A stretch of 64,000 bases of DNA from Aphanothece sacrum FPU1 (lineage in GTDB: Bacteria; Cyanobacteriota; Cyanobacteriia; Cyanobacteriales; Microcystaceae), in contig NZ_BDQK01000013.1 in NCBI RefSeq assembly GCF_003864295.1, forward strand, positions 744,001 to 808,000. The letters run 5' to 3'. Positions within the stretch are counted from its first letter, which is position 1. Each line of letters starts with the position of its first letter. Below are positions 4,888-33,620 of this stretch, piece by piece. The position numbers and the translations under genes are program-made. A model generated the notes under the pieces. The model saw only the letters and a list, made by a program, of their open reading frames with translations, was not told the origin of the DNA and searched no databases.

Positions 4888-4994
4888 ATAAGTAAAGCTT
4901 ATAATTTGTAGGGTGGGTTAGACGCGGCTATGATTTTGATAAAAAAACCATAACTTTTAAGGCGCGTCGTAACCCACCATCTTAAATATTATAG
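4888..4994. repeat. Dispersed repeat A, copy 1 (5' part)
   Basis: This 107-nt copy matches the first part of the full copy at 21094-21237. It holds an inverted repeat of the GGTGGGTTA...TAACCCACC type with GACGCG/CGCGTC inside. The match stops after TATTATAG at 4994, exactly where the IscB element appears to begin. Confidence 0.75.
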
Positions 4995-5011
4995 CGGCTG
5001 TCAACAACCCA

Positions 5012-5038
5012 CCGTTAATCGGAGTACCGATGTAACGG
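5012..5038 (+). other. Left-end hairpin of the IscB element
   Basis: Outer stem CCGTTA/TAACGG, inner stem ATCGG/CCGAT, four-base loop AGTA and a single unpaired G between the two 3' stem arms. All 11 pairs are Watson-Crick. Subterminal imperfect hairpins like this are the recognition sites of Y1 (HUH) transposases in IS200/IS605 elements. Confidence 0.75.
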
Positions 5039-5243
5039 GGGCTTGAAATATAGCCTAAGTTGACCAGACTAAGTATCTAGTATACTACGTTATTTTTGTC
5101 ACGACACCTTGCGGATGCGAAGCTAGTCCCCTGCTCTGTCATTAGTAATTAAACATCTTTAAAGGGTTAAGGAAGTGTTACTAATTTAAAAAGCTTAAAT
5201 AACATTGTCGAAGCTAACTTTACCCAGTAATGGAGAGGCAGTA
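5012..5243 (+). ncRNA. Probable omega RNA (guide scaffold) of IscB
   Basis: IscB nucleases use an omega RNA encoded just upstream of the gene, with the guide taken from DNA outside the left end. Here about 205 nt without an open frame separate the left hairpin from the iscB start, with several short complementary segments. I could not derive a full fold. The limits are only the element end and the iscB start. By this logic the guide would be the bases just left of the element end, inside or next to repeat A copy 1. Confidence 0.4.
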
Positions 5244-6521
5244 ATGTCAAATTATGTGTTAGTAATTGATTCAAACAAACAACCATTAAACCCTTGTCAT
5301 CCGTCAGTAGCCAGAAAACTATTAAAAAGTAAAAATGCAGCAATATTTAGACAATATCCTTTTACTATTGTCTTAAAAAAAGAAATTCTCGATGTTGTAA
5401 TTGAACCAATAGAAATTAAAATAGATCCTGGTTCTCAAACAACTGGTATTGCTTTAGTTCAAGGGGATAAAGTTATATTTGGTGCTGAACTTTCTCATCG
5501 TGGTTCAACTATTAAAGATAGTTTAGAATCAAGGAGATCATTACGTCGCGGTCGTCGTAGTCGTAAAACTCGTTATCGTCAAGCTAGATTTCTTAATAGA
5601 AAAAAACCTTCATGTTGGTTAGCTCCTTCCTTACAACATAGAGTAGATACTACTTTAACTTGGATTAAAAAACTAATTAAGTTCGCTCCTATTGTTGGTA
5701 TTTCTCAAGAATTGGTAAGATTTGACTTACAACAATTAGAAAATCCTGAAATATCAGGAGTAGAATATCAACAAGGTGAATTAGTTGGTTACGAGGTAAG
5801 AGAGTATTTATTAAACAAATGGGACAGAAAATGTTCTTATTGTTCAATAGAAAATGTCCCTTTACAAGTTGAACACATTCATCCTAAAGCCAAAGGAGGT
5901 ACAAATAGAATAAGTAATTTATGTTTAGCTTGTGAATCATGTAATCTCAAAAAAGGAACTAAAGATATTAATGTATTTTTAGCTAAAAAACCTGATGTTT
6001 TAAAGCGTATTTTATCACAAGCGAAACGTCCCTTAAAAGATGCTGCTGCTGTTAATTCTACCAGATGGACATTATTTAATGCTTTAAAAAACACAGGTTT
6101 ACCCATAACTACAGGATCAGGAGGTAAAACTAAATTTAATAGAACACGATTAAATTTACCAAAACAACACTGGATTGATGCAGCTTGTGTAGGAATAGTT
6201 GATACTTTAAAAGTGTTAACTAATAAACCATTATTAATTAAAGCAACAGGTCATGGAACTAGACAATCTTGCAGAACCGATAAATATGGTTTTCCTTCTA
6301 GATATGTTCCTAGATTCAAATTCATTAAAGGTTTTCAAACAGGAGATATCGTAAAAGCTGTTGTAACTAAAGGTAAAAAAATAGGGACTTATGTTGGTCG
6401 TGTTGCTGTCCGATCAATAGGTAGTTTTAATATATCTAGTCCTAATGGATTAATCCAAGGTATTAGTTATAAAAACTGTACGCATATTCACAAAAAGGAT
6501 GGTTATTCTTATGCGACATAG
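5244..6521 (+). CDS. iscB: RNA-guided endonuclease IscB
   Basis: A 425-aa OMEGA nuclease of the family ancestral to Cas9. Order: PLMP domain (residues 1-50, PLNPCHP), RuvC-I with Asp61 (IKIDPGSQTTG), Arg-rich bridge helix (about 96-118), RuvC-II with Glu156 (ISQELVRFD), HNH domain (about 195-240, with CSYC, VEHIHPKAKGG and CESC, His211), RuvC-III with His309 and Asp312 (HWIDAACVG), and a C-terminal basic domain. All catalytic residues are present, so it should be active. ATG 5244 is preferred because GGAGAGG lies 5 nt upstream. A TTG at 5205 would add 13 residues ahead of the conserved PLMP start. Confidence 0.93.
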   Translation: MSNYVLVIDSNKQPLNPCHPSVARKLLKSKNAAIFRQYPFTIVLKKEILDVVIEPIEIKIDPGSQTTGIALVQGDKVIFGAELSHRGSTIKDSLESRRSLRRGRRSRKTRYRQARFLNRKKPSCWLAPSLQHRVDTTLTWIKKLIKFAPIVGISQELVRFDLQQLENPEISGVEYQQGELVGYEVREYLLNKWDRKCSYCSIENVPLQVEHIHPKAKGGTNRISNLCLACESCNLKKGTKDINVFLAKKPDVLKRILSQAKRPLKDAAAVNSTRWTLFNALKNTGLPITTGSGGKTKFNRTRLNLPKQHWIDAACVGIVDTLKVLTNKPLLIKATGHGTRQSCRTDKYGFPSRYVPRFKFIKGFQTGDIVKAVVTKGKKIGTYVGRVAVRSIGSFNISSPNGLIQGISYKNCTHIHKKDGYSYAT

Positions 6522-6544
6522 ACCTTGCCCCTCATTTCCTCTCA

Positions 6545-6571
6545 TCGCTAATCGGAGTACCGATGTAGCGA
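6545..6571 (+). other. Right-end hairpin of the IscB element
   Basis: Outer stem TCGCTA/TAGCGA, inner stem ATCGG/CCGAT, loop AGTA and one unpaired G. The fold is the same as at the left end, but the outer-stem bases differ and the pairing is kept (compensatory changes). It is flanked by CTCA on the left and GAGTC on the right, like the tnpA-side end of the IS200/IS605 element at 33553-33588. Confidence 0.75.
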
Positions 6572-6593
6572 GAGTCTCCATGAGGGCGGAAAG

Positions 6594-6696
6594 ATGATTT
6601 TGATGAAAAACCCATAACTTTTAAGGCGCGTCGTAACCCACCAGCTTAAGTATTATAGGTGATTATACATTTTATACCAAGATATCGGGAGAGCCT
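6594..6696. repeat. Dispersed repeat A, copy 2 (3' part)
   Basis: It matches the last 103 nt or so of the full copy at 21094-21237, including the tail CATTTTATACCAAGAT and GGGAGAGCCT. The 5' third is missing, cut at the IscB right end. Its first 65 nt also match the left flank of the IscB element. Confidence 0.75.
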
Positions 6697-31815: not shown

Positions 31816-31924
31816 TTGACACTCTCGCCGCTAACCGCTTGGGGGGTGTAGCGGGAGATTCCTGATTCAACGAGCGATGCTTTCTAATACAAGTACCAGC
31901 GAGTCTTATTCACTCTCCACAGGC
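31816..31924 (-). ncRNA. Probable reRNA/omega RNA of TnpB at the element end
   Basis: TnpB nucleases use an RNA from the 3' end of tnpB through the element end, with the guide from flanking DNA. Here about 110 nt after the tnpB stop holds the end hairpin (31828-31854: outer CCGCTA/TAGCGG, inner ACCGC against GGGGT with one mismatch). By analogy the guide would be the bases left of about 31816. Inferred from family knowledge only. Confidence 0.45.
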
Positions 31925-33043
31925 TTAAAATTCCGTCTGTCCGGCGGTATTTATTGACAGTATTCTTAATCCTTCTGCTCTGATATTTTTAGCTGCGTTT
32001 TCGTCTCGGTCATGGTGAGTTTGACAATTAGGACAAACCCAATCTCTGATGCTTAAATTTATCAAATTATTTTTGAATCCGCAGCAAGAACAGGTTTTTG
32101 TACTTGGATAAAATCTGTCAACTTGAACAAGTTTCCCCCCCTCTCTTTCTAGCTTGTAGCTTAAGAAGTTTAGTAACATACCAAATCCAGCATCAAGTAT
32201 TGATTTAGCTAATTTGGTACGCGCTAATCCTTTTATACAAAGGTTTTCTGCTACAATGACTTGGTTTTCGTCAACGAGCTTTCTTGAGAGTTTGTGGAGA
32301 AAATCTTGTCTAGTATTAGTAATTTTTTCGTGAACAAGAGCGACTTCTTTAATCGCTTTTCTACGGTTGTTAGAACCCTTGGTTCTACGAGATAATTTCT
32401 GTTGTCTCCTTTTTAATCGTTTGGCATATTTTCTAGTTGGTTTAATTGGGTCAACCTTATAAGTTGTTTCACCATCAAAGACTGTCACTAGGCTAGATAA
32501 GCCTAAATCAATTCCTGAGACTTTAGAGGTTTTATTGATGATTAAATCGTCAGATTCAAATAAAATAGAGGCAAAATATTTACCTGTACTTGTTTTTGAA
32601 ACTGTCACTGACTTAATCTTTCCTAAAATCTCTTTTGAAAGTTTAGCTTTAACAATCCCCAGTTTTGGGAGCTTTAAACCGTTGTTATTAAGAGAACAAC
32701 CTTCAGGGTAACGGATTGATTGTTGTTTATATTTACTCTTAAACTTAGGAAATTTAGCCCTTTTAGAAAAGAAATTTTTAAAAGCAGCTTCTAAGTTTTT
32801 GAGTGCCTGTTGTAAGGTGGCAGCCGTTGATTCTTGCAACCATTCAAAATCAGGGAGCTTTTTTAGCTGAGTTAGGTCTTTTGCCATTTGGCAATAAGTC
32901 ATCCCAATCCCAGTTTCTTGATACTGATTGTTAGTCTTATTTAAGTAAAAATTATACACAAATCTTGCACAGCCTAAATTTCGATTTAAGGCAATTTCTT
33001 GTGGCTGATTTGGATAAATTCTGACTTTTAAGACATTTAACAC
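31925..33043 (-). CDS. tnpB: RNA-guided endonuclease TnpB
   Basis: 372 aa, full length. N-terminal helix-turn-helix-like domain (QPQEIALNRNLGCARFVYN), RuvC-I Asp179 (SGIDLGLSS), basic region KRLKRRQQKLSRRTKGS, RuvC-II Glu266 (VIVAENLCIKG), zinc finger CSCCG...CPNC (Cys318, 321, 337 and 340) and RuvC-III with Asp347 (HHDRDENAAKN). All catalytic residues are intact. In IS200/IS605 elements it cuts the excised donor site to favour element retention. Divergent from tnpA. Confidence 0.95.
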   Translation of the reverse strand: MLNVLKVRIYPNQPQEIALNRNLGCARFVYNFYLNKTNNQYQETGIGMTYCQMAKDLTQLKKLPDFEWLQESTAATLQQALKNLEAAFKNFFSKRAKFPKFKSKYKQQSIRYPEGCSLNNNGLKLPKLGIVKAKLSKEILGKIKSVTVSKTSTGKYFASILFESDDLIINKTSKVSGIDLGLSSLVTVFDGETTYKVDPIKPTRKYAKRLKRRQQKLSRRTKGSNNRRKAIKEVALVHEKITNTRQDFLHKLSRKLVDENQVIVAENLCIKGLARTKLAKSILDAGFGMLLNFLSYKLEREGGKLVQVDRFYPSTKTCSCCGFKNNLINLSIRDWVCPNCQTHHDRDENAAKNIRAEGLRILSINTAGQTEF

Positions 33044-33095
33044 GGCTTTCGACCTGTTGTGTTACATTAGCCAGTGTAACACTTAACGCTTTAAT

Positions 33096-33512
33096 ATGTC
33101 AAACGCTTACAATCATGGATTTAGATCGGTCTACAGACTTAACGCTCATATTGTTTTTGTCGTTAAATACAGAAAACAGGCTATCAGTGAACCTATACTG
33201 TCTAGACTTCAAGAAATCTTTAAAGACACTTTAAATAAATGGGATTGTGAATTACTAGAATTTAATGGCGAGTCCGACCATGTTCATTTGCTCATTGACT
33301 ACAAACCCGATAAACCTTTATCTACTTTAATCGGTAATTTAAAAACTGTTAGTAGTAGGTTGATACGAAAAGAAAACCCTGACTTGTCTAAGAAATACTT
33401 TTATGGAAAACCTTATTTTTGGACAGGCTCTTATTTTGTGGCAAGTTGTGGTGGCGTAACTGTTGAACAACTTAAAAATTATGTTGAAAACCAAAATTCC
33501 CCTAAGAAATAA
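33096..33512 (+). CDS. tnpA: IS200/IS605 Y1 transposase TnpA
   Basis: 138 aa. The HUH motif is His62-Val-His64 (SDHVHLLIDY) and the nucleophile is Tyr129 (QLKNYVENQ). Family blocks VYRLNAHIVFVVKYRK and LIGNLKTVSSRLIRKE are present. It is a single-strand transposase that recognises subterminal hairpins, intact and likely active. It is the only full Y1 transposase in the window and therefore the best candidate to move the hairpin-bounded IscB element in trans. Confidence 0.96.
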   Translation: MSNAYNHGFRSVYRLNAHIVFVVKYRKQAISEPILSRLQEIFKDTLNKWDCELLEFNGESDHVHLLIDYKPDKPLSTLIGNLKTVSSRLIRKENPDLSKKYFYGKPYFWTGSYFVASCGGVTVEQLKNYVENQNSPKK

Positions 33513-33556
33513 GGACTCCCTACGGTCGGTTTATTTGTTGGCAAAAATTCATCTCA

Positions 33557-33583
33557 CCGCTAACCGCTTAGGCGGTGTAGCGG
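33557..33583 (+). other. tnpA-side end hairpin of the IS200/IS605 element
   Basis: Outer stem CCGCTA/TAGCGG, inner stem ACCGC/GCGGT, four-base loop TTAG and one unpaired G. Stem lengths, loop size and bulge are the same as in the IscB hairpins. Flanks CTCA and GAGTC are shared with the IscB right end. Confidence 0.8.
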
Positions 33584-33620
33584 GAGTCCTCTTTTTGCAT
33601 TTTAGATAGTATAATTTTTT

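What the first reader, a model, noticed from the sequence alone, without database searches (positions are those of the whole stretch)
4995..6593. IscB element shares hairpin-end architecture with a complete IS200/IS605 element: likely trans-mobilised
Both IscB end hairpins (5012-5038, 6545-6571) and both IS200/IS605 end hairpins (31828-31854, 33557-33583) have a 6-bp outer stem, a 5-bp inner stem, a 4-nt loop and a single unpaired G on the 3' side. Stem bases differ but pair (CCGTTA/TAACGG, TCGCTA/TAGCGA, CCGCTA/TAGCGG), so pairing is conserved by compensatory change. The IscB right end and the tnpA-side end also share the flanks CTCA and GAGTC. IscB has no tnpA; the only intact Y1 transposase in the window is at 33096-33512. 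Y1 recognition of subterminal hairpins is established; that this TnpA or a sibling moves the IscB element is inference.
Basis: partly seen in the sequence, partly recalled or inferred. Interest (0 to 1): 0.75.

Follow-up and report, generated by a model that had tools for sequence, protein, structure and literature searches.

The report
IscB element borrowing a neighbour's transposase
A small mobile DNA element that carries a Cas9-like nuclease but no transposase has ends built like those of complete elements in the same genome, so it most likely moves by borrowing their transposase.

Summary
The shared hairpin architecture is real and not chance; one slip is that the window's left IS605 hairpin has a G:G mismatch. 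The IscB element is 5000-6593, in three near-identical copies. It inserts precisely before ATGA, carries a HEARO omega-RNA and encodes no TnpA. Besides hairpins it carries IS608-type 4-nt guides at both ends, spaced as in the resident IS605. They predict its own cleavage sites (TCAT, TGAC); the IS605 guides predict CTAT and TCAA. Across related ends 84 of 107 obey the guide rule (shuffled guides: mean 20.8, maximum 35). So IscB shares the recognition structure but encodes another target. In relatives this end type flanks IscB, TnpB-only, TnpA+TnpB and RNA-only elements. In a sister genus IscB uses a second hairpin type, whose left end matches (55-57 of 59 nt) that of a resident TnpA+TnpB element of another TnpA clade. 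Hairpin type follows TnpA clade in the 15 labelled cases but is scattered on the IscB tree. Trans-mobilisation by a fam1/fam2-clade TnpA is well supported genomically; nothing was tested biochemically. The element is a new member of a known kind. The bolder reading: IscB elements switch TnpA partners by swapping end hairpins.

The parts
5000..6593 (+). IscB element, non-autonomous, bounded by comparison of three copies
   Evidence: copies identical from 5000 to the ATGA but for one SNP; empty sites
6594..6597 (+). ATGA target (TCAT on the transposed strand), single copy, shared by all three insertions; expected position of the IscB TAM
5000..5003 (-). right cleavage site TGAC (transposed strand); as RNA it is also part of the 5' arm of omega-RNA stem P1
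5008..5041 (-). TnpA-right-end hairpin with 3-bp foot
5042..5045 (-). right guide CAAG, predicts TG?C
   Evidence: rule plus inference
5000..5223 (+). HEARO omega-RNA scaffold (RF02033, 149.2 bits)
5244..6521 (+). iscB, 425 aa (RRXRR + HNH); the ATG at 5244 is my choice of start
6541..6574 (-). TnpA-left-end hairpin with 3-bp foot
6575..6578 (-). left guide GAGA, predicts TC?T (observed TCAT), 15-nt linker
31816..33605 (-). complete IS605-type element fam1 (7 copies in genome): tnpB 31925-33043 (-), tnpA 33096-33512 (+)
31824..31857 (-). fam1 right-end hairpin (G:G mismatch in this copy) with foot; guide GAAT at 31858-31861, cleavage site TCAA at 31816-31819
33553..33586 (-). fam1 left-end hairpin with foot; guide AGGA at 33587-33590
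33606..33609 (+). fam1 target ATAG (CTAT on the transposed strand)

Best explanation
The IscB element is a non-autonomous single-strand (IS200/IS605-type) transposon. A Y1 TnpA supplied in trans binds its two subterminal hairpins; in this genome the best candidate is fam1 or fam2. The element's own 4-nt guides place the cleavage sites TCAT (left) and TGAC (right) in the active site, the strand is excised, and it inserts 3' of a TCAT. Because guides sit in the element's DNA and not in the protein, one TnpA could move IS605 into CTAT and IscB into TCAT. ATGA, the complement of that target, is also where the IscB TAM should lie. After excision or insertion the IscB-omega-RNA, whose guide would be read from the upstream flank, would cut the empty site and help restore a copy. 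Shown here: boundaries, empty sites, guide/cleavage-site agreement, shared architecture, agreement of hairpin type with TnpA clade. Inferred: TnpA binding and cleavage, and RNA-guided cutting.
For: Hairpins beyond chance. Same nested left-end fold in IscB and IS605. Three copies with 1 SNP and no tnpA. Precise insertion: joining the C2 flanks restores a 536-aa frame, and orthologues in two relatives align without a gap across the join (170/226 and 169/226; a third, 136/196, has gaps but none at the join). Guide rule met 3 of 3 at both ends of IscB and of fam1, and by 84 of 107 distinct ends against a shuffled mean of 20.8 and maximum of 35; one end per hairpin-and-guide class, 59 of 80 against mean 14.0 and maximum 26. 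Same end type around TnpB-only, TnpA+TnpB, IscB and RNA-only elements. In G018 eight IscB copies share 55-57 of 59 nt of the left end with a TnpA+TnpB element, while the preceding 45 nt do not match (19 of 45). TnpA clade agrees with hairpin type in 15 of 15 labelled TnpAs. With four TnpA queries, no tnpA match in the flanks held for 57 of 58 IscB loci.
Against: IscB and fam1 differ in loop (AGTA against TTAG), inner stem and guides, so recognition of both by one protein is unproven. G002 carries 22 HEARO RNAs and type-A IscB ends but no fam1-like TnpA match and only weak or broken Y1 genes. 23 of 107 ends miss the rule at the spacings tried; L071 and L072 break one pair, and type-B IscB right ends in G018 meet 2 of 3 pairs (by eye). 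Several genomes hold both end types. 42 of 57 TnpA rows could not be given a hairpin type.
Confidence: 0.78

Rival explanations
1. The ends are inherited Y1 substrates, but the TnpA that moved IscB is not fam1/fam2: it was lost, or came and went with another element; the resident IS605 is only a structural cousin.
For: Different guides and target from fam1/fam2. G002 and G006 keep 22 and 24 HEARO RNAs with no fam1-like TnpA match.
Against: Near-identity of the three IscB copies implies recent movement, and fam1 is recent too (the same TnpA protein in 7 copies). Guides are element-borne and IS608 has been retargeted by changing them (PMC5934647, passages), so the target difference does not exclude fam1.
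Confidence: 0.15
2. Another resident Y1 protein (C13:690903, C13:1024648, C1:259368 or the degenerate C8:50823) moves IscB.
For: They are present. C1:259368 lies in an array of A+T-rich palindromes of which one unit meets the bare 6+5 bp, 4-nt loop, 1-nt bulge geometry exactly and two with one mismatch.
Against: None of the four stretches matches the end model R1 even at E up to 1. C13:690903 has a smaller end hairpin (by eye). C13:690903 and C13:1024648 fall outside the type-A TnpA clade; the other two were not in that tree.
Confidence: 0.04
3. The hairpins are kept as RNA structure (omega-RNA part and terminator) and not as transposase substrates.
For: The 5' hairpin lies inside the HEARO model and the 3' one just after iscB.
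Against: The 3' hairpin is outside the omega-RNA. Guides agree with cleavage sites. The same hairpin type flanks TnpB stretches without a HEARO match. In G018 the shared stretch is the last 59 nt of the left end, not the cargo side.
Confidence: 0.03

Closest known systems
Non-autonomous ISC / IscB (HEARO) elements (Kapitonov 2016, Altae-Tran 2021, Weinberg 2009: recalled, not held; PMC9755519: passages)
   Same: IscB with RRXRR and HNH, HEARO RNA upstream, insertion before ATGA, no tnpA inside. [quoted passage not shown]
   Different: Here the guides, exact boundaries, empty sites and the matching resident TnpA end type are worked out for one family, with two interchangeable hairpin types.
IS608 (IS200/IS605 family; PMC5934647, passages and section 11)
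   Same: Subterminal imperfect palindromes; guides 5' of the hairpin (AAAG, GAAT) that pair with TTAC and TCAA; C at +1, as here (TCAT|C, CTAT|C). fam1 TnpA matches solved IS608 TnpA chains.
   Different: IscB cargo; no tnpA; 3-bp foot; 15-nt left linker; targets TCAT (IscB) and CTAT (fam1).
Geobacillus IS605/IscB elements mobilised by TnpA in trans (Meers 2023, recalled only; not held)
   Same: Recalled as experimental support that TnpA acts on TnpB and IscB elements in trans.
   Different: Not read here; another phylum and other ends.

Membership tests
IscB / HEARO (ISC) element | IscB protein with RRXRR (RuvC-like) and HNH domains | tested here: met
   RRXRR 248.9 bits, HNH 43.8 bits; IscB chains, best E 2.2e-43
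IscB / HEARO (ISC) element | HEARO omega-RNA upstream of iscB, starting at the element edge | tested here: met
   RF02033 5000-5223, full model
IscB / HEARO (ISC) element | precise insertion next to ATGA/GTGA (motif recalled), no target duplication | tested here: met
IscB / HEARO (ISC) element | RNA-guided DNA cleavage | not testable with these tools
   no biochemistry possible
IS200/IS605 single-strand transposon | subterminal imperfect hairpins | tested here: met
IS200/IS605 single-strand transposon | guide tetranucleotides that can pair with left and right cleavage sites | tested here: met
   3 of 3 pairs at each IscB end
IS200/IS605 single-strand transposon | own tnpA (autonomous member) | tested here: not met
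   no tnpA in 5000-6593; hence filed only as a non-autonomous element that works like one
IS200/IS605 single-strand transposon | TnpA binding and single-strand circular intermediate | not testable with these tools
   needs in vitro assay

The most novel reading that the evidence does not exclude
IscB/omega-RNA modules are transposase-partner switchers. They repeatedly exchange their end hairpins between two structural types (6+5 bp with 4-nt loop; 5+4 bp with 2-nt loop), each read by a different TnpA clade, while keeping their own target guide (ATGA or GTGA), which fixes the IscB TAM. The 5' edge of the omega-RNA is a doubly constrained sequence: as DNA it is the TnpA right cleavage site, as RNA it is stem P1.
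Probability: 0.55. Interest if true: 0.65.

Novelty: new member of a known kind. Interest (0 to 1): 0.5.

Why it matters
IscB nucleases are held to be ancestors of Cas9, yet most copies lie far from any transposase. This gives a sequence-level answer, testable with short oligonucleotides, to which TnpA moves them and why they insert at ATGA or GTGA: the element's own DNA guide sets the site. If partner switching holds, it explains how an RNA-guided nuclease can spread without carrying a transposase, and it is a natural case of IS608-style retargeting, which I otherwise know only from laboratory work.

Tried and rejected
Considered and rejected: (1) that the unpaired G is the shared specificity mark: fam2 has C, relatives A, C or T. 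(2) That IscB and fam1 share a target: they do not. (3) A clean genome-level co-occurrence of type-A IscB with type-A TnpA: it fails in G002, and several genomes hold both types, so I rest on TnpA clade and hairpin type instead. (4) The high pairing percentage as evidence in itself: most of those ends were picked by a scan that demands pairing, so only the two-sided changes count. (5) The C1 insertion as an empty-site proof: the joined frame ends two codons after the join, so it neither supports nor opposes. Led nowhere: papers by DOI (not held); literature searches.

Rows dropped. Guide test: one search used hits entered by hand (104 distinct ends, 97 with the foot in register, 76 fitting, shuffled maximum 31). 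One search repeats it on all 147 hits: 32 duplicates, 1 with short flank, 7 with the foot out of register (3 of them the solo micro-elements), leaving 107. Hairpin types of IscB: 71 loci were screened; 31 got a type set by hand and went into; program hits that I judged chance (for example L065, L091, L094, L098, L301) were not used. One search repeats the test on 25 of them, a subset that I chose after seeing the first tree. TnpA: 57 distinct rows, 5 type A and 6 type B with a guide fit, 46 without a fit. One search adds L120 and L131 (type A hits, L120 weak) and L137 and L318 (type B without guide fit); an A-like hairpin without fit beside L121 and one beside the distant L333 were left unlabelled. 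These rows came mostly from a fam1 query, so L354-like TnpAs are under-sampled.

Full report
THE OBSERVATION. A scan for 6+5 bp, 4-nt loop and one 3' unpaired base finds three perfect sites in the window, all among the four named, and the fourth (31828) with one mismatch. A Markov null gives 0.05 per strand at no mismatch. The mismatch is a G:G in the inner stem; 3 of 7 genomic copies of this IS have it. Folding the transposed strand as DNA gives the same nested structure at the IscB and IS605 left ends: outer stem of 6-7 bp, a 5-by-5 internal loop, 3-bp foot, unpaired base, 6 bp, unpaired base, 5 bp, 4-nt loop (z-scores of the four ends -3.0 to -7.1).

BOUNDARIES. The genome holds three IscB copies with one SNP among them, at C13, C2 and C1. 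They share 5000 to 6597 and then diverge; the last four bases, ATGA, are the target. Removing 5000-6593 from the C2 copy restores a 536-aa frame, and orthologues in two relatives align across the join without a gap (170/226 and 169/226); a third aligns at 136/196 with gaps elsewhere. In the window the element sits in a repeat whose copies begin exactly at ATGA, 4930 and 6594. The IS605 element fam1 (7 copies) runs from 31816 to 33605 with target ATAG; removing one copy (L021) restores a 373-aa frame, while the other sites gave no long frame.

WHAT THE ELEMENT IS. IscB has RRXRR and HNH domains and matches solved IscB chains. HEARO RNA spans 5000-5223. No tnpA lies inside. Searched with TnpAs of four kinds, the flanks held for 58 IscB relatives gave a match in one locus only, L101.

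GUIDES. In IS608 the cleavage sites are chosen by guides just 5' of the hairpin, with pairs A+16:T-3 and A+17:T-4 (PMC5934647, passages and section 11). From its pairs (AAAG/TTAC, GAAT/TCAA) I take the rule C1-G2, C2-G1, C4-G4; the last pair is my inference. On the minus strand IscB has GAGA with TCAT and CAAG with TGAC; fam1 has AGGA with CTAT and GAAT with TCAA. The left linker is 15 nt and the right linker 4 nt in both. Of 107 distinct ends of this type, 42 fit as right ends and 42 as left ends (84 of 107); shuffling guides among ends gives a mean of 20.8 and a maximum of 35 in 2000 shuffles. With one end per hairpin-and-guide class it is 59 of 80 against a mean of 14.0 and a maximum of 26. 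Ends are still related, so the shuffle is not a strict probability. In IscB with another end type, GTGA goes with guide CTTC and ATGA with TTTC as read on the plus strand; there the best-fitting candidate was chosen, so only copies with known boundaries, as in G018, are an independent test.

SAME ENDS, DIFFERENT CARGO. A covariance model R1 of 19 ends finds such ends in 12 of 14 genomes searched at E up to 0.05. Among 40 stretches read they flank IscB (e.g. L187, L197, L200), TnpB without a TnpA match (e.g. L183, L188, L214), TnpA with TnpB (L206, L209) and, in one genome, HEARO RNA without an IscB match (L184 and L185 with both hairpins; L216 and L217 with one clear hairpin). HEARO RNAs are numerous in relatives: 61, 59 and 32 in G007, G013 and G005, against 3 plus 2 sub-threshold in this genome.

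PARTNERS. In G018 (same family, one contig) eight IscB copies at 73-74% identity have a different end hairpin, 5+4 bp with a 2-nt loop, and the same ATGA target; R1 finds no end of the first type there. A TnpA+TnpB element there has a left end identical to theirs at 55-57 of 59 nt, while the 45 nt before it do not match (19 of 45). Its right end differs. Its TnpA belongs to another clade than fam1. Among 57 TnpA rows, type-A hairpins with guide fit lie only beside fam1-like TnpAs (5) and type-B only beside L354-like ones (6); 46 had neither. On the tree of 15 labelled rows one change suffices (100/100). On the IscB tree the types need 8 changes, at least 3 forced by well supported branches (31 rows), or 6 and 3 in a stricter set of 25, where one clade is rejected (p-AU 3e-62; labels come from hairpins, but that subset was chosen after the first tree). 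So IscB lineages have changed end type repeatedly, and with it, I infer, their TnpA.

DOUBLE CONSTRAINT. The right cleavage site is also part of the 5' arm of omega-RNA stem P1. Where the DNA site reads GTAAAC in place of GTCAAC (L062, L111, L197), both the guide (AAAG for CAAG) and the P1 partner (GTTTAC for GTTGAC) change with it. L071 and L072 are exceptions on the guide side.

AGAINST. IscB and fam1 differ in loop and inner stem; G002 has type-A IscB ends and no fam1-like TnpA match; type-B IscB right ends meet 2 of 3 guide pairs (by eye); another resident Y1 gene, C1:259368, lies among A+T-rich palindromes of the same bare geometry, though these do not match R1; no protein was tested. [quoted passage not shown] Four key papers are not held and are recalled only, so I do not claim that trans-mobilisation of IscB is new; I recall it as shown for Geobacillus. 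The listings (open-licence papers only) showed no report of TnpA-partner switching by IscB; I did not read most of the listed papers.

VERDICT. The element itself is an ordinary non-autonomous IscB element; the switching of end types is the part worth following.

Noticed in passing
L035, L036, L040 (genome C8:15341, C13:133295, C13:566016): Three solo micro-elements of about 60 bp: fam2 right end and left end fused through one hairpin (TTGACAC ... ATAG), at three different sites. Either hairpin-mediated deletions or single-hairpin mobile units.
   Followed up: partly
L184, L185, L216, L217 (genome G005): HEARO omega-RNA elements without an IscB match; L184 and L185 (roughly 470 bp) keep both hairpins and an ATGA edge (L184's left guide does not fit the rule): RNA-only elements that would need TnpA, and IscB if they act, in trans.
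   Followed up: partly
window 4930-4994 and 6594-6658: 65-nt direct repeat (94%) on both sides of the IscB element, starting exactly at the ATGA target; a tandem repeat that was there before, or a trace of repair after insertion.
   Followed up: partly
L003, L004, L006: 3 of 7 fam1 copies carry a G:G mismatch in the right-end hairpin, so a sub-line with a damaged stem may still have spread.
   Followed up: no
L028:4100-5200 (genome C1 near 259368): A Y1 gene of another kind sits in an array of repeated A+T-rich palindromes with 6+5 bp, 4-nt loop, 1-nt bulge geometry: REP-like units around a resident transposase-like gene.
   Followed up: partly
L354 (genome G018:C1:4097000-4102500): TnpA+TnpB element whose left end matches the resident IscB elements for 55-57 of 59 nt but whose right end differs.
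   Followed up: yes
genomes G002 and G006: 22 and 24 HEARO RNAs but no fam1-like TnpA match and only weak or broken Y1 genes: elements persisting after loss of a mover, or moved otherwise.
   Followed up: partly
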